From Flavobacterium phragmitis (GTDB taxonomy: Bacteria; Bacteroidota; Bacteroidia; Flavobacteriales; Flavobacteriaceae): a stretch of 64,000 nucleotides of DNA. Below are positions 4,026-62,735 of the stretch, piece by piece. The notes beneath the pieces are model-generated. The model had not been told where the DNA came from. It did no database searches and was given only the letters and a program-made list of their open reading frames with translations. Position 1 is the first letter of the stretch, and each line of letters starts with the position of its first letter. The stretch spans positions 62,001-126,000 of the forward strand of contig NZ_FOMH01000003.1 in the NCBI RefSeq assembly GCF_900112575.1, given 5' to 3'. The position numbers and the translations under genes were made by a program.

Positions 4026-4982
4026 ATGTTTAAAAAACTTTTTGGAGCTCTAACAGGAGACAAACAGGAAAACCAAAATTATGAAGCACAGACTTCAAAT
4101 GACAATTATGAAAATGATTATGAGGATAATTATAAAGAAGTAGAATACGATCCGGAAACTTTACACGGAACACATTATACAGTAGAAGATTTTGATAACG
4201 AAGTGGAAGCAAGAGCAGAAGCCTGGATTGCAGATGAACGTGCAAGTGGTGAGAACTTAGACGAAAAAGACATTCAAAACATTTATTTCAACTACAGAAG
4301 AACAGTTTACACAGAATGGAACAACTGTGATTCTGATCAAATGATTCGGTTTGAACACGCAAATTCTTTAAAATACAGTGGCATCCAGACTTCAGGATTT
4401 GTAAAAGTGGATGACAATAACCCGTTTTTAGAACCTGTTCATGGTGTAGATTTGAGAACTTATACGGCAATGTGTCTTAAAATCAGTGCTGGAATTGATT
4501 ATCTAGAAGTTTGTAAAGCAATGGGATTTGAACCAATTGTTTGGGAAGAACTAAATACAATCTGGCCACAGCGTATGGGTGAAGATACATCATTTACAGT
4601 TACCACGCTTTTCGGTCAATATTATGCTGAAAATGTAACGGTTCCGCAATTGGAAAACTTAAAAGCGGAGATTTCTGAAGAAGGTGCTGCAAACTTAGAA
4701 AGAATGAAAACCGATCGTTATTTCTACGAAGAATTAGCTGGAGCAAGACAAGCGGCTTACGAATACGGAATTGATGGCGCACAATGGATTCTAGAAAACT
4801 TCGGAATCAATCTGGCCGATTTCCAATCTGTAGCCATGCAATGGATGACGGAGCAAAACCAAAACTGGAATTCTCAAGACATTATCGAGTTTTCTAATTA
4901 TCAACAGGAAAAACAAAAAGAATACGCTGCAAAATTCGCCACGGAACAAGGCGGAAATATCGCAGACGACGTAAATTTCTAA
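4026..4982 (+). CDS. Conserved hypothetical protein of the SPFH operon
   Basis: A soluble acidic protein of 318 residues. It has a low-complexity Asn/Glu/Asp/Tyr-rich linker at about 13-45, then a globular helical region rich in Trp and Tyr. No signal peptide, membrane helix or metal-binding motif is seen, and I cannot assign a family with confidence. It starts 26 bases after the coiled-coil zinc-ribbon gene and ends before a hairpin terminator, so it is the last gene of the unit. Its N-terminus (MFKKLFGALTGDK) could form an amphipathic helix. Confidence 0.7.
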   Translation: MFKKLFGALTGDKQENQNYEAQTSNDNYENDYEDNYKEVEYDPETLHGTHYTVEDFDNEVEARAEAWIADERASGENLDEKDIQNIYFNYRRTVYTEWNNCDSDQMIRFEHANSLKYSGIQTSGFVKVDDNNPFLEPVHGVDLRTYTAMCLKISAGIDYLEVCKAMGFEPIVWEELNTIWPQRMGEDTSFTVTTLFGQYYAENVTVPQLENLKAEISEEGAANLERMKTDRYFYEELAGARQAAYEYGIDGAQWILENFGINLADFQSVAMQWMTEQNQNWNSQDIIEFSNYQQEKQKEYAAKFATEQGGNIADDVNF

Positions 4983-22918: not shown

Positions 22919-23602
22919 ATGAATTTAACCGAACACTACAATCAACTTTATAAAACATCTTCTGAAACTATTGCAACAGGGAAATATGTGATTGATTCAG
23001 AAATAAAAAACGAATCTGATTCGCGGTTCGGAATAACTTTATTAATTCGTCCAAACGATGAAATAAAAGCCAATATACAGCATTTTATCAATGAATTGAA
23101 AAAAGTAGAACCTGAGCAATATTTTTATCCAGATTCTGACATTCATATCACCGTAATGTCTATCATTTCATGTTCTACCGAGTTCAATTTAAATATGATT
23201 TCACCAAATGAATATATTGAATTGATCTGTAGAAGTCTTGTGGATGTCAATAAAATTAAAATTCATTACAAAGGTATAACAGCTTCTCCATCAGCAATAA
23301 TGATTCAGGGATTTCCAAGTGATGAGACTTTGAATAATTTAAGAAACAGACTTCGTGAAAACTTCAAAAATTCCAATCTGCAACAAAGCATTGACAGCCG
23401 ATATGAAATTTCTACGGCACATTCGACTATAATGCGTTTTCAGGACAAACTTCATGATCCCAAAAAACTAATTGAAACTGCTGCAAAATTCCGCGATTAT
23501 GATTTTGGAGAATTTGATGTAAAAAGCATCGAATTAGTTTACAATGATTGGTATCAGCGAAAAAGCACTACTCGTGTTTTGGGTGATTTTGGATTGAGAT
23601 AG
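22919..23602 (+). CDS. 2H phosphoesterase / 2'-5' RNA ligase-like protein
   Basis: A 227-residue protein with the two H-x-T/S motifs of the 2H superfamily: H76-I-T78 in DIHITVMSII and H168-S-T170 in STAHSTIMRF. Members hydrolyse 2',3'-cyclic or 2'-5' phosphodiester bonds. Length and motif spacing (92 residues) are normal for 2H enzymes. Co-transcribed with the DUF1801 gene. The true substrate (RNA end or nucleotide) is unknown. Confidence 0.85.
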   Translation: MNLTEHYNQLYKTSSETIATGKYVIDSEIKNESDSRFGITLLIRPNDEIKANIQHFINELKKVEPEQYFYPDSDIHITVMSIISCSTEFNLNMISPNEYIELICRSLVDVNKIKIHYKGITASPSAIMIQGFPSDETLNNLRNRLRENFKNSNLQQSIDSRYEISTAHSTIMRFQDKLHDPKKLIETAAKFRDYDFGEFDVKSIELVYNDWYQRKSTTRVLGDFGLR

Positions 23603-52981: not shown

Positions 52982-53992
52982 TCAACAAATTCGTGGCAAC
53001 TGTTCTCCAACCAAAGGATTCACCACTCTTTTGCCTCCAAAAGCGCTTTCGATAATTATTTTTGATGGATGTTCCGCAGTAACAAAACCAATTTCTGATG
53101 CATTTGGATTTATCTTTTGCAGAATCTCTAATACCTCATCTTTGATTTCGGGTGCTGTGACGCAGACGAAAATCCCTTCATTCGCCACATACAGCGGGTC
53201 TAAACCTAATAATTCGCAAGCGCTTTTTACCTGATTTTCGACTTTTATATTTTCATCCAAAAGCGAAATTCCTAAATTAATTTCTGTCGTTATTTCGTGT
53301 AGAACTGAAGCCAGTCCGCCACGGGTGGCATCTCTTAAAAAATGAATTTTATTTCCGAATCGCTCAATTAAATCTAAAACTGTATGATTCAAATTGGTCG
53401 TATCACTCAAAATCTCGCTTTCAAATTCCAATCCTTCACGTTCAGACATAATGGCCATTCCGTGCGAAGCAATTGGGCCGTTTATGATTACAACATCATT
53501 TTCCTTAATGTTTTGAGTTTTAATGTTGGCTTTTTCATGAAGAACACCAATTCCCGAAGTATTAATATAAATTTTATCGCCTTTTCCTCTTTCGACTACT
53601 TTGGTATCTCCGGTAACGATTTGAACATTGGCTTTGTCCGCAGTTTGTTTTATTGATTTAATAATTTCTGTAAACTCATCCAAGCTCAAACCCTCTTCAA
53701 TAATCAAAGCCAGCGAAAGATATTTTGGAACTGCACCGCACATCGAAAGGTCATTGACAGTTCCGTTTACTGCCAATTCACCAATATTTCCGCCTTTAAA
53801 AAATACTGGCGAAATAACATAACTATCTGTCGAAAAAGCCAGATTTCCTTGTAAATTTAAAAATGCACCATCGTGACGAACTTCTAAAATATCATTTTTC
53901 AGAATCTTAAAAATTACTTCATTGAGGAGTTTAGTCATGTGTTCACCGCCACTTCCGTGGTGCAGGTGAATTACTTCCTGTTTATTTTCCAT
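52982..53992 (-). CDS. hypE: Hydrogenase maturation protein HypE
   Basis: With HypF makes the cyanide ligands of the [NiFe] centre: HypF carbamoylates the C-terminal Cys of HypE, which then dehydrates the group with ATP to a thiocyanate. 336 residues of the PurM-like AIR synthase fold, with HHGSGGEHMTKLL, STDSYVISPVFF, GDTKVVERGKGD, LRDATRGGLASVLHE and the essential C-terminal PRIC (C336). Last gene of the leftward hypA-B-C-E operon, 9 bases after hypC. Confidence 0.97.
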   Translation of the reverse strand: MENKQEVIHLHHGSGGEHMTKLLNEVIFKILKNDILEVRHDGAFLNLQGNLAFSTDSYVISPVFFKGGNIGELAVNGTVNDLSMCGAVPKYLSLALIIEEGLSLDEFTEIIKSIKQTADKANVQIVTGDTKVVERGKGDKIYINTSGIGVLHEKANIKTQNIKENDVVIINGPIASHGMAIMSEREGLEFESEILSDTTNLNHTVLDLIERFGNKIHFLRDATRGGLASVLHEITTEINLGISLLDENIKVENQVKSACELLGLDPLYVANEGIFVCVTAPEIKDEVLEILQKINPNASEIGFVTAEHPSKIIIESAFGGKRVVNPLVGEQLPRIC

Positions 53993-54001
53993 TGCACAGT
54001 T

Positions 54002-54238
54002 TTAAATCTCTTCGCCCATTTGTTTTAAAACCTCCATAGTTCTTTTGGCTTCGGCTTCATCAATAATTCCAATTGCTGCGCCTACATGAACCAAAAGATA
54101 ATCGCCTACTTTAGCTTCGGGAACTAAAGCTAAATTGACCTCTTTAATAATGCCTTCAAAAGAAACATTTCCAATTCTAAAAGTTTCATCAAGCTCTGCT
54201 GTCACTTTTTCAAGTCGGCCCGGAACTGCTAAACACAT
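54002..54238 (-). CDS. hypC: Hydrogenase maturation chaperone HypC
   Basis: A 78-residue chaperone beginning MCLAVPGRLEKV. The Cys exposed after removal of Met binds the Fe(CN)2CO unit together with HypD and delivers it to the large-subunit precursor. It has the HypC/HupF beta-barrel pattern (KVGDYLLVHVGAAIGIIDEAEAKRTME). The start is 2 bases after the hypB stop. Confidence 0.97.
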   Translation of the reverse strand: MCLAVPGRLEKVTAELDETFRIGNVSFEGIIKEVNLALVPEAKVGDYLLVHVGAAIGIIDEAEAKRTMEVLKQMGEEI

Positions 54239-55108: not shown

Positions 55109-55450
55109 CTATTTTATGATTATTTTCTTTATTTTTAATTCTTTGCCCGAGATTATTTCTTTAAACGGACTGTTGCAATTGGGGCAACTATCAAAAGTTT
55201 TTTCGATATGAAATTCGGTTTCACATTCGGCACAACGGGCTCGTCCGATTGGCTCTTCAACAAATAATTTTGTTTGCGCTAAAACATTTCCATTAATACA
55301 TTGTGGCCATACAAAATAAAAGGAATCCATTTCAACTCCTGATAATTTTCCTATTTCTAAATAAAGTTCCAAAACTGTTTTACCTTTTATTTTGTTTACT
55401 TCTTGCTGGACAATTTTAACAATAGAAGTAGCTACAGAAAGCTCATGCAT
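55109..55450 (-). CDS. hypA: Hydrogenase nickel chaperone HypA
   Basis: A 113-residue nickel metallochaperone. N-terminal MHELSVATSIV supplies the nickel ligand H2; a zinc site is formed by C73-AE-C76 and C89-PN-C92. Partner of HypB. First gene of the leftward hyp operon, starting 189 bp from the divergent hyaA. Confidence 0.96.
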   Translation of the reverse strand: MHELSVATSIVKIVQQEVNKIKGKTVLELYLEIGKLSGVEMDSFYFVWPQCINGNVLAQTKLFVEEPIGRARCAECETEFHIEKTFDSCPNCNSPFKEIISGKELKIKKIIIK

Positions 55451-55515
55451 ATTAACAGATTTTTAAAACATCGATTACAATCATTAAAAATACTTTACAT
55501 TATTCAAGAAAAACC

Positions 55516-55527
55516 TGATAATTATCA
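55516..55527. promoter_or_regulatory. Candidate Crp/Fnr-type operator TGATAATTATCA
   Basis: A perfect 12-base palindrome with the TGAT-N4-ATCA core of Fnr-type sites, in the hypA-hyaA intergenic region. Its centre lies about 40-42 bases upstream of the start predicted from the TAGTTTTG element at 55551, the class II activator position. It could serve both operons. Confidence 0.6.
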
Positions 55528-55550
55528 TCTTTAAAAAACAATTGTTTAAA

Positions 55551-55558
55551 TAGTTTTG
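55551..55558 (+). promoter_or_regulatory. Bacteroidota -7 element of the hydrogenase operon (TAGTTTTG)
   Basis: An exact TAnnTTTG match, giving a predicted start near 55562 and a leader of about 78 bases before the hyaA ATG. No good -33 TTG is present at normal spacing, which fits an activator-dependent promoter. Confidence 0.6.
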
Positions 55559-55639
55559 AAATACATTTTAACTAGCAAATAGTATTCGTTCTTTAATTAA
55601 TTTTCAAATAAAGCCAAACTTTCTTAAAATATAATCAGC

Positions 55640-56767
55640 ATGAAAAGTAAAGATAAAGTGAATGAGACCTATTACACCAGCATTGAAAGACAAGGCTATA
55701 ATAGAAGAGATTTTTTAAAATTTGTGGCTTATATTGGAGCTTACATGGGCGTACAAAGTTCTGCGATTGGCCAAATTACCAAAGCGCTTGAAACCACGCC
55801 GCGTCTCCCTGTAATCTGGGAGCATTTTCAGGAATGCACCTGTTGCAGTGAGTCGTTTATACGATCAGACCACCCAATTGTAGCCGATATTATTTTAGAT
55901 AAAATCTCTTTAGATTATACTTTAACACTTATGGCTGCTTCCGGACATCAGGCCGAAGCTGCAAAAAAAGCGACTATGGACAAATACAAAGGAGAATATA
56001 TTCTTTGTGTTGAAGGTTCTGTACCAATAGGTGCTGATGGAAATTACTGTTGTATAGGTGGACGAAGTGCTGTCGATATTTTGAAAGAATCTGCTGCTGG
56101 AGCAAAAGCTATTATTGCTTGGGGAAGCTGTGCTACAACAGGTTGTGTACAAGCGGCAAAACCAAATCCTACGGGAGCTGTGCCTATCAACAAAATTATT
56201 ACAGATAAACCAATAATAAATGTTCCGGGCTGTCCGCCAATTGGAGAAGTTATGGCTGGAATTATAGTACACGTTGTAGCATTTGGAAAATTACCAGAAT
56301 TAGACAGTGCTGGTCGTCCAAAAGCTTTTTATTCTAAAAGAGTTCACGATAGCTGTTATCGAAGACCTTATTTTGATGCAGGATTATTTGCCGAAAATTT
56401 TGATGACGAAAACGCTAAAAAAGGATATTGCTTATATAAAGTAGGTTGTAAAGGGCCAAGTACTTACAATGCTTGTGGCAATATGAAATGGAATGGCGGT
56501 GTCAGTTATCCAATTCAATCTGGTCACGGTTGTTTGGGCTGTAGTGCCAAAGACTTTTGGGATGCAGGAAGTTTTTACAGCAGAGATGCTTCTGTAAATG
56601 CTGGTAGCATTGAAGGAAATGCGGATACTTTGGGTAAAATCGCTCTTGGAGGCGTAGCCGCAGGTATTGGAACTCATGCTATTCTTTCAAACATATCAAA
56701 AAGAAAAGAATTAAAAAATAGAATTACTCAGGCAACTGAAAATGAGAAACATTTAGACGATTTATAA
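55640..56767 (+). CDS. hyaA: [NiFe] hydrogenase small subunit, O2-tolerant type
   Basis: Electron-transfer subunit carrying three Fe-S clusters. 375 residues: an N-terminal twin-arginine signal with R22-R23-DFLKF, then the proximal cluster ligands C66, C68, C69, C164, C169 and C198. C68 and C169 are the two extra cysteines (ECTCCSES; WGSCATTGC) that mark the [4Fe-3S] cluster of O2-tolerant enzymes; standard enzymes have glycine there. Further ligands: H236/C239/C264/C270 and C279/C298/C301. A C-terminal helix (about 331-349) anchors it in the membrane. Exported folded with the large subunit. Confidence 0.97.
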   Translation: MKSKDKVNETYYTSIERQGYNRRDFLKFVAYIGAYMGVQSSAIGQITKALETTPRLPVIWEHFQECTCCSESFIRSDHPIVADIILDKISLDYTLTLMAASGHQAEAAKKATMDKYKGEYILCVEGSVPIGADGNYCCIGGRSAVDILKESAAGAKAIIAWGSCATTGCVQAAKPNPTGAVPINKIITDKPIINVPGCPPIGEVMAGIIVHVVAFGKLPELDSAGRPKAFYSKRVHDSCYRRPYFDAGLFAENFDDENAKKGYCLYKVGCKGPSTYNACGNMKWNGGVSYPIQSGHGCLGCSAKDFWDAGSFYSRDASVNAGSIEGNADTLGKIALGGVAAGIGTHAILSNISKRKELKNRITQATENEKHLDDL

Positions 56768-56783: not shown

Positions 56784-58520
56784 ATGGCAAAGAGAATAGT
56801 TGTTGACCCTATTACCAGAATAGAAGGGCATTTAAGAGCCGAAGTAGAAATATCAGACGGTACAATCCAAGAAGCATTCCTATCATCAACAATGGTTAGA
56901 GGGCTGGAAAATATCGTGAAAGACAGAAACCCTAAAGATGTTTGGGCATTTGTACAAAGAACCTGCGGAGTTTGTACGGCAACCCATGCCACAGCATCTG
57001 TAAGGGCAGTTGAAGATGCACTTGGAATTGTTGTTCCTCCCAATGCAGAAATTGTTAGAAATCTAATGCTTGGGGCATTGTATATACATGACCACGTTGT
57101 ACATTTTTATCATTTACATGCCTTCGACTGGGTTGATGTCGTAAGTGGTTTAAATGCTGATCCTGTAAAAACGTCACAATTAGCACAATCAATTTCAAAT
57201 TGGCCAAAAAGTTCACCAGGCTATTTTTCTGACTTACAAAAGAGATTGAAAAGATTTGTCTCCAGTGGTCAATTAGGAATTTTTGCTAATGGCTATTGGG
57301 GACATCCTCAAATGAAATTGCCTCCCGAAGCGAATTTAATGGCTACAGCACATTATCTTGAAGCGCTGGAATGGCAAAAAGAAATTGTAAAAGTGCATGC
57401 TATTTTTGGCGGTAAAAATCCGCATCCTAATTTTTTGGTTGGAGGAATGGCATGCTCTATAAATCTCGATGACGCAAGCGGTTTAAATGCTGAGAGACTT
57501 GCTTTTGTGAGACAATTGCTAGAAGAGGGAAAACGTTTTGTAGAACAAGTTTATCTTCCTGATGTTCTTACTATCGCTGGTTTTTATAAAGATTGGGGAG
57601 CTATTGGGGGTTTTCATAATTTTATGACATTTGGTGATTTCCCTACTCAAGGGCATAATAATACGAACAACAATACTTTTAAATTTCCCGCTGGAGTTAT
57701 TTTAAATAAAGACCTGACAAAAGTCCATGATTTAGATTTAAGAAATCTTAAAACCGTTGAAGAATATGTAAATAATTCCTGGTATGATTATGAGGGCGAC
57801 GGAAACTTAGGTAAACAACCTTGGTCTGGAGAAACTAAAATAAATTATACAGGACCAAAACCGCCTTACACACATTTAAATGTTGACGAAAAATACAGTT
57901 TCATCAAAACACCAAGATGGAAAGGTCATGCAATGGAAGTTGGTCCACTGGCAAGAATGCTGGTTGGCTATGCCTCAGGAAGAGAAGAATTTAAAGAAAT
58001 AGTCGATTCAACCTTATCAAAACTTCAAGTTCCTGTTGGGGCACTATTCTCTACTTTAGGAAGAACGGCCACCAGAGCCTTAGAATCACAATTGGTTGCC
58101 AATTGGAATTTAGAATTTTTTGATAATTTGATTGATAATATCAAAAAAGGTGATACTAAAATGGCTAACATGGAAAAATGGGAAACCTCAACCTGGCCAA
58201 AAGAAGCACAAGGAGTTGGTCTTGTAGAAGCACCAAGAGGAGCCCTAAGCCACTGGATTGTAATAAAAGATGCCAAAGTTGCCAACTATCAGCAAGTGGT
58301 TCCTTCAACATGGAATGCTTCTCCGAGAGATCCTAAAGGACAAAGGTCTCCTTATGAAAGTACCTTAATTAATACACCTGTTGCCAACCCCGAATTGCCT
58401 CTTGAAATTATTAGAACCATACATTCCTTTGATCCTTGCATCGCCTGCGCAGTGCATTTATATGATGAAAATGGCGATATCATTAAAGAAATAAATGACA
58501 TAACAATCTGCACCGTTTAA
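56784..58520 (+). CDS. hyaB: [NiFe] hydrogenase large subunit
   Basis: Catalytic subunit that splits H2 at the NiFe(CN)2CO centre. 578 residues with the N-terminal nickel ligands in R59-T-C61-G-V-C64 and the C-terminal ligands in D550-P-C552-IA-C555-AV-H558. The 20 residues after H558 are the maturation peptide removed by HyaD once nickel is in place. The protein has no signal peptide of its own and rides on the Tat signal of HyaA. It starts 16 bases after hyaA. Length is typical for group 1 enzymes. Confidence 0.98.
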   Translation: MAKRIVVDPITRIEGHLRAEVEISDGTIQEAFLSSTMVRGLENIVKDRNPKDVWAFVQRTCGVCTATHATASVRAVEDALGIVVPPNAEIVRNLMLGALYIHDHVVHFYHLHAFDWVDVVSGLNADPVKTSQLAQSISNWPKSSPGYFSDLQKRLKRFVSSGQLGIFANGYWGHPQMKLPPEANLMATAHYLEALEWQKEIVKVHAIFGGKNPHPNFLVGGMACSINLDDASGLNAERLAFVRQLLEEGKRFVEQVYLPDVLTIAGFYKDWGAIGGFHNFMTFGDFPTQGHNNTNNNTFKFPAGVILNKDLTKVHDLDLRNLKTVEEYVNNSWYDYEGDGNLGKQPWSGETKINYTGPKPPYTHLNVDEKYSFIKTPRWKGHAMEVGPLARMLVGYASGREEFKEIVDSTLSKLQVPVGALFSTLGRTATRALESQLVANWNLEFFDNLIDNIKKGDTKMANMEKWETSTWPKEAQGVGLVEAPRGALSHWIVIKDAKVANYQQVVPSTWNASPRDPKGQRSPYESTLINTPVANPELPLEIIRTIHSFDPCIACAVHLYDENGDIIKEINDITICTV

Positions 58521-59312: not shown

Positions 59313-59819
59313 ATGGAAGTAGCAGTCAGCACAAGAAAAATAGACGAATTTCATTCTGATGGAAATACTATTTTAATACTCGGAATAGGGAATTATTTAA
59401 TGGGAGATGAAGGTGTCGGTGTGCATTTTATAAACAGGATAGATAAAACCCAATTCCCAGAAGGCATTTCTTTTATAGATGGCGGAACTGGTGGTTTTAC
59501 TTTAATTCCTTACATAGAAAATCATCAGAAAGTAATTATTGTAGATGCCACAATGGATGGCAAAGAAGAAGGAACTATTTCACTTTTGAAACCACGTTTT
59601 TCAGAAGATTTCCCCATTTCGTTAAGTGGACACAATTTTGGCCTTAAAGATATGGTCGAAATCTTGTCTATGCTCGATACCATGCCTGAAATCTATTTAT
59701 ACACCATTACCATTTTAAAAATGGAGCCAATGTGCATGCAACTTTCACCAAAAGTAGAAGCTTCAATAGAAAAAGTAACTGCAGAAATTATACAACAGAT
59801 AGAAAGATTTAAAAACTAA
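59313..59819 (+). CDS. hyaD: Hydrogenase maturation endopeptidase
   Basis: HybD/HupD-type protease that removes the C-terminal peptide of the large subunit after nickel insertion. 168 residues with GIGNYLMGDEGVG and the three nickel-recognition residues E33, D78 and H107. An 18-residue N-terminal extension precedes the core; an internal start is possible but no better candidate is seen. It lies 6 bases after hyaC and 3 bases before hypF. Confidence 0.95.
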   Translation: MEVAVSTRKIDEFHSDGNTILILGIGNYLMGDEGVGVHFINRIDKTQFPEGISFIDGGTGGFTLIPYIENHQKVIIVDATMDGKEEGTISLLKPRFSEDFPISLSGHNFGLKDMVEILSMLDTMPEIYLYTITILKMEPMCMQLSPKVEASIEKVTAEIIQQIERFKN

Positions 59820-62108: not shown

Positions 62109-62735
62109 ATGGATATTCTTGAATTATTAGGACACATTGGTAAAACCGAAGAAAAAGATAAAATTTCTTATTCAGCTGGAGTAGTAATGGCTTTAAGTTT
62201 GAAAGATATTGGATTTGAAGAAATAAAATATGAAGATTATGTAGACGGAATGAAATCTATTTTTGAAAAAACTACAGAAAAAATTTCTCCAAAACGTTCT
62301 ATTGAAATTTTTAATAATTATGTAGCGCTTCTTCAGGAAGAGTTAAAAGTTAAAAATGCAGAAATTGGAACTGCCTTTTTAGCAAAAAATGCTTCTAAAG
62401 AAAATATTATTTCATTGCCAAGCGGTTTACAATATGAAGTTTTAACGGAAGGAAATGGTAAAAAACCAAAAATTACCGATACCGTAAATGTTATCTATGA
62501 AGGTTATTTAATAAATAAAAATGTCTTTGATTCCACCAAAGACACAGGCCCTCAAAAAATGAGAGTTTTACAGACCATTAAAGGCTGGCAGGAAGCCCTG
62601 CAATTGATGCCCGAAGGTTCGCGCTGGAAAATTTATATTCCTCATCATTTAGCTTATGCCGAAATGGGAGCCCCACCAATAATTCAGCCCAATTCAACTT
62701 TGATATTCATTATTGAACTTCTAAATATTATTTAA
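62109..62735 (+). CDS. Cytoplasmic FKBP-type peptidyl-prolyl isomerase (FklB/Mip-like)
   Basis: A 208-residue protein with an N-terminal helical FKBP_N dimerisation domain (about 1-100) and an FKBP domain (about 105-208): VNVIYEGYLINKNVFDSTKDTG, IKGWQEALQLMPEGSRWKIYIP and AYAEMGAPPIIQPNSTLIFIIELL. It has no signal peptide, unlike secreted Mip proteins. It lies 3 bases after hypF and upstream of hypD, inside the maturation operon. In E. coli the FKBP SlyD aids nickel delivery with HypB, so a comparable folding role for hydrogenase is plausible. It lacks SlyD's His-rich tail. Confidence 0.9.
   Translation: MDILELLGHIGKTEEKDKISYSAGVVMALSLKDIGFEEIKYEDYVDGMKSIFEKTTEKISPKRSIEIFNNYVALLQEELKVKNAEIGTAFLAKNASKENIISLPSGLQYEVLTEGNGKKPKITDTVNVIYEGYLINKNVFDSTKDTGPQKMRVLQTIKGWQEALQLMPEGSRWKIYIPHHLAYAEMGAPPIIQPNSTLIFIIELLNII

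What the first reader, a model, noticed from the sequence alone, without database searches (positions are those of the whole stretch)
55451..55639. Divergent hydrogenase promoter with an Fnr-like palindrome at an activator position
TGATAATTATCA is a perfect TGAT-N4-ATCA palindrome in the 189-bp gap shared by the hyp and hya operons. A TAnnTTTG element at 55551-55558 predicts a start about 41 bases downstream of its centre, the class II activator spacing. The lack of a -33 element fits activator dependence. This suggests O2/redox control of an H2-uptake system in a mainly aerobic genus.
Basis: partly seen in the sequence, partly recalled or inferred. Interest (0 to 1): 0.65.

Follow-up and report, generated by a model that had tools for sequence, protein, structure and literature searches.

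The report
Mirror-image promoter switch for hydrogenase genes
In this Flavobacterium-like bacterium and many relatives, one short DNA palindrome sits exactly midway between two opposite-facing promoters for the genes that build a hydrogen-consuming enzyme, so a single regulator, probably one that senses low oxygen, may switch on both sets of genes together.

Summary
In detail: TGATAATTATCA (55516-55527) and TAGTTTTG (55551-55558) lie in the 189-bp hypA/hyaA gap. Each motif alone is near chance in the window; comparison makes them real. TGAYNNNNRTCA occurs in 57 of 76 distinct gaps of relatives, against a Markov mean of 1.05 of 76. In 42 of 61 sites TAnnTTT starts exactly 29 bases from the centre, which is -41.5 (class II), given flavobacterial TAnnTTTG at -12..-5 (PMC9723704). 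One site is thus class II for both operons in 31 of 61 sites and in 7 of 16 previously unseen gaps. The likeliest regulator is FNR-like; the same palindrome lies upstream of its gene in 58 of 60 loci read, and the own-genome site set includes hemN, ccoS and nadA. It conserves four cysteines, not in canonical FNR spacing. O2 control is inferred. 34 of 92 distinct gaps lack the architecture; 17 of those 34 share another element. New variant of a known kind.

The parts
55451..55639 (.). hypA-hyaA divergent intergenic region, 189 bp
55516..55527 (.). TGATAATTATCA, proposed shared site of an FNR-like dimer; centre 55521.5
   Evidence: TGAYNNNNRTCA in 57 of 76 distinct gaps of relatives
55551..55558 (+). 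TAGTTTTG, proposed -12..-5 element of hyaA, 29 bases from the palindrome centre; predicted +1 at 55563 (77-nt leader)
   Evidence: position convention from PMC9723704; start site not mapped
55485..55492 (-). TATTTTTA, proposed mirror-image -12..-5 element of hypA, 29 bases from the centre; predicted +1 at 55480 (30-nt leader)
   Evidence: start site not mapped
55109..55450 (-). hypA
   Evidence: PF01155
54241..55101 (-). hypB
   Evidence: TIGR00073 over cut-off
54002..54238 (-). 78-aa ORF, hypC-like by eye (MCLAVPG start)
   Evidence: no family search made
52982..53992 (-). hypE
   Evidence: TIGR02124 over cut-off
55640..56767 (+). hyaA, hydrogenase small subunit
   Evidence: TIGR00391 over cut-off
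56784..58520 (+). hyaB, hydrogenase large subunit
   Evidence: PF00374
58527..59306 (+). hyaC, b-type cytochrome subunit
   Evidence: TIGR02125 over cut-off
59313..59819 (+). hydrogenase maturation protease
   Evidence: PF01750
59823..62105 (+). hypF
   Evidence: HypF domains
62109..62735 (+). FKBP-type peptidyl-prolyl isomerase between hypF and hypD
   Evidence: PF00254, PF01346
62935..64000 (+). hypD, runs a few bases past the window end
   Evidence: TIGR00075 over cut-off

Best explanation
The palindrome is the single binding site of an FNR-like Crp/Fnr-family dimer that activates both divergent hydrogenase operons from the class II position, centred at -41.5 relative to hyaA (predicted +1 at 55563) and to hypA (predicted +1 at 55480). 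Shown by sequence: the site, its conservation, the mirror-symmetric spacing, the own-genome site set, and a regulator gene whose homologues carry the same palindrome upstream. Inferred: binding, activation, the start sites, the regulator's identity, and that it senses falling O2 through four conserved cysteines. hypF and hypD lie on the hya arm and hypA, B, (C), E on the other, so both arms are needed to mature the enzyme, which a shared switch would ensure. The predicted starts are 83 bp apart, so two polymerases probably cannot occupy the site at once and the arms would fire in turn (inference).
For: 57 of 76 distinct gaps have exact TGAYNNNNRTCA, Markov mean 1.05. Spacing 29 on the hyaA side 42 of 61, on the hypA side 37 of 61 with TAnnnTT (10 of 61 with strict TAnnTTT), both 31 of 61. 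After thinning at 75% gap identity: 38 of 48 with the palindrome, 27 hyaA, 22 hypA, 19 both. Sixteen gaps not used before: 14 palindrome, 10 hyaA, 7 hypA, 7 both. Own-genome spacing peak 14 of 48 before hemN, ccoS, nadA and others. Pattern matches exceed the backwards-read control in 20 of 21 genomes. Palindrome upstream of the regulator gene in 29 of 30 and 29 of 30 loci, and of none of the other three Crp/Fnr genes of this genome. F. psychrophilum raises cbb3 oxidase and haem enzymes at low O2 (PMC9723704, passages).
Against: No experiment. 34 of 92 distinct gaps lack class II geometry on either side, among them Flavobacterium lineages L016/L091, L095 and L088. At 65% thinning only 8 (hyaA), 6 (hypA) and 4 (both) of 21 keep it. 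Near relatives in the genus often lack the hypA element at exactly 29 (L005-L011, L018, L020, L096), and the relaxed hypA pattern was chosen. Total own-genome matches over all spacers (48) barely exceed the control (38); one of 21 genomes has fewer matches than control (G345, 13 against 17). The regulator misses the Fnr model cut-off (82.7 of 228 bits), and its own gene mostly lacks class II spacing.
Confidence: 0.77

Rival explanations
1. The site is real, but another of the genome's Crp/Fnr-family proteins binds it, for example L004, and the signal is nitric oxide, sulfur redox state or another cue rather than O2.
For: Four HTH_Crp_2 proteins exist. L004 and L002 also have a recognition-helix E and R in the aligned place. 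L004 lies close to a palindrome with a spacer-24 element (L105).
Against: No TGAYNNNNRTCA within 300 bp upstream of L002, L003 or L004, whereas the L001 family has it upstream in 58 of 60 loci. L001 scores best against the Fnr model, 82.7 bits against 20.8, 42.2 and 43.6.
Confidence: 0.13
2. The palindrome activates only hyaA; hypA uses an independent promoter, and the mirror element is a by-product of A+T-rich sequence.
For: Strict TAnnTTT on the hypA side is at 29 in only 10 of 61 sites, and close genus relatives often lack it.
Against: TAnnnTT on that side peaks at exactly 29 (37 of 61, next best 7), again in 7 of 16 new gaps; in the window the strict form is present.
Confidence: 0.15
3. 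The bound protein represses rather than activates, or does both under different conditions.
For: The sign of control cannot be read from sequence; at the regulator's own gene the spacing is mostly not class II.
Against: -41.5 is the usual activating position: 19 of 23 E. coli FNR-activated promoters with known starts are centred within 4 nt of it (PMC3688515, passage); no full -33 element is present.
Confidence: 0.05
4. Chance palindrome.
For: Within the window alone its frequency is that expected by chance.
Against: Conservation and fixed spacing in relatives, and the own-genome spacing peak.
Confidence: 0.02

Closest known systems
Escherichia coli FNR-activated class II promoters (PMC3688515, passages seen)
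   Same: Palindromic TGAT-N4-ATCA core; centre at -41.5; regulon with respiratory and haem functions
   Different: Bacteroidota -7 element TAnnTTTG; outer bases ATGAY..RTCAT in the relatives rather than TTGAT..ATCAA (the latter recalled); one site serves two mirror-image promoters; regulator lacks one canonical cysteine position (canonical positions recalled)
Rhizobium leguminosarum hypBFCDEX promoter, FnrN type (PMC3534401, passages seen)
   Same: Fnr-type control of hydrogenase maturation genes under microaerobic conditions
   Different: There the structural genes hupSL have a separate NifA-dependent promoter; here one site appears to serve both arms
Flavobacterium psychrophilum sigma-A promoters and O2-limitation response (PMC9723704, abstract, passages and section 15 part 1 seen)
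   Same: TAnnTTTG at -12..-5; cbb3 oxidase and haem enzymes rise at low O2, like the site-bearing genes here
   Different: A find in the held main text gave no occurrence of Crp, Fnr, palindrom, TGAT or hydrogenase; its supplements were not seen

Membership tests
FNR-type class II promoter | Palindromic site with TGAT-N4-ATCA core | tested here: met
   TGATAATTATCA at 55516-55527
FNR-type class II promoter | Full TTGAT-N4-ATCAA consensus (recalled) including outer bases | tested here: not met
   2 mismatches, both outer bases (CTGATAATTATCAT)
FNR-type class II promoter | Site centred at -41.5 of the start | tested here: inconclusive
   Met for the predicted starts (29 bases to the -12 T on both sides); starts not mapped
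FNR-type class II promoter | Activator-dependent transcription | not testable with these tools
   needs reporter or deletion
FNR (regulator L001) | Crp/Fnr HTH with E and R in the recognition helix | tested here: met
   HTH_Crp_2 over cut-off; E191 and R195 in 60 of 60; equivalence to FNR E209/R213 recalled
FNR (regulator L001) | Score over the NCBIfam Fnr cut-off | tested here: not met
   82.7 bits, cut-off 228
FNR (regulator L001) | Four cluster cysteines at the canonical places (E. coli C20, C23, C29, C122, recalled) | tested here: not met
   C4, C7 and C106 fit three of the places by eye, the C29 place has no cysteine; C53 is the fourth conserved one; each present in 57 of 60 and absent from the same 3
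FNR (regulator L001) | O2-labile [4Fe-4S] cluster | not testable with these tools
   needs the purified protein

The most novel reading that the evidence does not exclude
One FNR-like dimer, probably holding an iron-sulfur cluster through an unusual cysteine set (C4, C7, C53, C106), sits at the exact mirror axis of two class II promoters. Polymerases facing opposite ways compete for the same activator, so the maturation arm and the structural arm fire alternately and in fixed proportion, and the hydrogenase is silent in air and on only when O2 runs low.
Probability: 0.35. Interest if true: 0.72.

Novelty: new variant of a known kind. Interest (0 to 1): 0.6.

Why it matters
It offers a testable reason why a flavobacterial uptake hydrogenase might look inactive in aerated culture. 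[quoted passage not shown] In the genus of R. marina, 6 of 10 genomes searched have a hyaA match, and all 6 have the mirror-image site; whether R. biformata is among them, and whether its enzyme is of the same kind, was not established. The symmetric layout is also a natural system for asking how one activator serves two opposed polymerases, and the regulator family has a noncanonical FNR-type cysteine set.

Tried and rejected
Rejected: chance palindrome. Less likely: activator for hyaA only. A Crp/Fnr gene beside the hydrogenase: tblastn with L001-L004 found none in the window, and among the 80 loci only L039 carries one, of the L003 type. Canonical FNR: model cut-off and one cysteine place not met. 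Class II autoregulation of the regulator gene: the spacing does not fit in most loci.

Literature, in the held open-access library only: flavobacteri/hydrogenase/fnr/promoter (2 papers, neither on this by title and abstract start); bacteroidetes/fnr/cbb3/palindrom; divergent promoters/class ii/fnr/single/binding site (one opened); flavobacterium/NiFe/hydrogenase/uptake/hyaa (84 hold at least 4 terms, 15 listed, none opened); bacteroid/fnr/oxygen/crp fnr/iron-sulfur cluster/microaerobic; crp fnr/bacteroid/regulon/binding motif/anaerobic. I saw no description of this promoter in those listings; that is not proof that none is in print. One search, on a Fur-type reading of the second element, listed 8 of 2,745 papers, none with the motif; none opened.

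Not done: a structure prediction of the regulator, because its loci came from the genome search, which the folding tool does not list among its allowed sources. The hydrogenase group (1d or 1l) was not determined.

Rows dropped: of 94 loci with hyaA (80, 14), 10 had no hypA hit (L017, L022, L039, L044, L052, L061, L069, L080, L093, L094) and 1 had it too far away (L024), leaving 83 gaps, 76 distinct. One search kept the best 80 of 321. In L010, L012, L019, L021, L023, L075 and L079 the hyaA end of the gap was extrapolated and does not fall on ATG. Palindrome columns of the anchored profile are fixed by construction. The TAnnnTT pattern was chosen after that profile; one search checks it on gaps of different sequence, but from the same family and partly the same genera. 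In one search I gave 40 of the 80 genomes plus that of L095, chosen to include most site-less ones. Regulator sequences were read only in the 30 best loci each; in L176-L178 the N-terminus was found by walking back to an ATG.

Full report
What was claimed and what is there. The window is contig 21, bases 62001-126000, of a 6.04-Mb genome. By hyaA its nearest named relatives are Flavobacterium (93% identity). The gap between hypA (55109-55450, minus) and hyaA (from 55640, plus) is 189 bp; TGATAATTATCA is at 55516-55527 and TAGTTTTG at 55551-55558, as reported. By frequency alone neither stands out: 3 found against 2.31 expected for TGATNNNNATCA, 97 against 100.58 for TAnnTTTG. The question had to be settled by comparison.

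Gene context. The minus arm is hypA, hypB, a hypC-like ORF (by eye) and hypE; the plus arm is hyaA, hyaB, hyaC, a maturation protease, hypF, an FKBP and hypD. Maturation genes are split over both arms, so enzyme assembly needs both.

Conservation. A scan of genome contigs kept the best 80 of 321 loci with a hyaA relative; 14 of 299 genus genomes have hyaA (own genome included). Of these 94 loci, 83 have a divergent hypA within 600 bp, giving 76 distinct gaps. Exact TGAYNNNNRTCA occurs in 57 of 76, against a mean of 1.05 and a maximum of 5 of 76 in 200 first-order Markov samplings.

Spacing. From the palindrome centre TAnnTTT begins exactly 29 bases away on the hyaA side in 42 of 61 sites; any other offset from 15 to 49 has at most 2. 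In F. psychrophilum the TAnnTTTG box lies at -12 to -5 (PMC9723704, section 15). That puts the palindrome centre at -41.5 and the window's hyaA start at 55563. In E. coli 19 of 23 FNR-activated promoters with known starts have the site within 4 nt of -41.5 (PMC3688515, passage).

The mirror half. On the hypA side TAnnnTT also peaks at exactly 29 bases (37 of 61, next best 7); strict TAnnTTT there is 10 of 61. Both sides 31 of 61, hyaA only 11, hypA only 6, neither 13. In the window the mirror element is TATTTTTA, 55485-55492 minus, predicting a hypA start at 55480; the own-genome search returned this one palindrome in both orientations. Thinned at 75% gap identity: 48 gaps, 38 with the palindrome, 27 with the hyaA element, 22 with the hypA element, 19 with both; at 65%: 21, 16, 8, 6 and 4. 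Because the relaxed hypA pattern was chosen after looking, I tested gaps not used before: of 27 loci from two further searches, 16 gaps were new; 14 have the palindrome, 10 the hyaA element, 7 the hypA element, 7 both. They are new sequences, but of the same family.

Genome-wide test. In the own genome, palindrome-N(8-38)-TAnnTTTR has 48 matches; 14 have spacer 23 (29 from the centre), 4 have 24, and each of the other 29 spacers has 0-3. The backwards-read control over all spacers gives 38, so the signal is the peak, not the total. In 20 of 21 genomes the pattern exceeds its control. After the 14 sites lie hyaA, hypA, hemN, ccoS, nadA, DHBP synthase, a Usp protein, a thioredoxin-like protein, a YceI protein, an outer-membrane protein and an ATP-cone/Mrr protein. 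Of the other three, one palindrome overlaps the end of an upstream ORF (L102) and two have no clear gene (L103, L109). A globin follows a spacer-24 site (L112). F. psychrophilum raises cbb3 oxidase and haem enzymes at low O2 (PMC9723704, passages).

Regulator. Four HTH_Crp_2 proteins exist in the genome. L001 lies beside a gene that resembles a copper P-type ATPase (weak family hits; CcoI-like by position, inferred). Its best family hit is Fnr, 82.7 bits against a cut-off of 228. Matches at E <= 1e-20 occur in 55 of 61 genus genomes. All 41 further genomes searched have some match, from close homologues to distant Crp/Fnr proteins. In the 60 best loci, TGAYNNNNRTCA lies within 260 bp upstream in 29 of 30 and 29 of 30, but not within 300 bp upstream of the other three Crp/Fnr genes of this genome. 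C4, C7, C53 and C106 are each in 57 of 60 and absent from the same 3 (L176-L178, about 40% identical); E191 and R195 are in 60 of 60. Joint loss suggests one cofactor; no cluster was shown. At the regulator's own gene the spacing is mostly not class II.

Against. 34 of 92 distinct gaps have no class II element on either side. Of these 34, 17 contain ATTCTAAAT, against 1 of 58 gaps with class II geometry; many have it within TTATTTTAAAACATTCTAAATTA or a near copy, in Lutibacter and similar loci. For 14 of those 17 the genome's L001-type locus was read, and all 14 have the four cysteines and a palindrome upstream. There the hydrogenase seems to have left this regulon while the regulon persists.

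Judgement. Observation and interpretation stand, extended: one site, two mirror-image class II promoters, and an FNR-like regulator as the likeliest binder. Binding, activation, start sites and O2 control remain inferred from the site set, the regulator family and the literature, including Fnr-type control of rhizobial hyp genes (PMC3534401, passages). A new variant of a known kind of promoter.

Noticed in passing
hypA-hyaA gaps of L016, L046, L047, L053, L057, L060, L068, L074, L077, L079, L081, L082, L083, L088, L095, L190, L196: 17 of 34 gaps without class II geometry contain ATTCTAAAT, often within TTATTTTAAAACATTCTAAATTA or a near copy, against 1 of 58 gaps with it. It looks like a different regulator's site; unidentified.
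   Followed up: partly
gaps of L046, L047, L057, L062: A second palindrome, GTAACAATTGTTAC, stands in four Lutibacter-type gaps.
   Followed up: no
L176, L177, L178 (genomes of L014, L013, L015): L001-like regulators that lack all four conserved cysteines but keep the recognition-helix residues; the gaps of L013, L014 and L015 have no class II spacing, and in L013 and L015 the palindrome is present.
   Followed up: partly
upstream regions of the L001-type gene, L119-L178: The palindrome upstream of the regulator gene is conserved, but TAnnTTT stands at 29 on the gene's side in only 5 cases and at 28 on the other side in 14, so the regulator may repress itself or the site may serve the neighbouring gene.
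   Followed up: partly
L116:1587-2414: An ATP-cone plus Mrr-type nuclease-domain protein has a spacer-23 site of this regulon; why such a gene would be in a low-oxygen regulon is unclear.
   Followed up: no
window 62109-62735: An FKBP-type peptidyl-prolyl isomerase gene lies between hypF and hypD in the plus arm; a role in hydrogenase assembly is possible but untested.
   Followed up: no
window 4328-4339 and 23545-23556: The only other TGATNNNNATCA matches in the window; their context was not examined.
   Followed up: no
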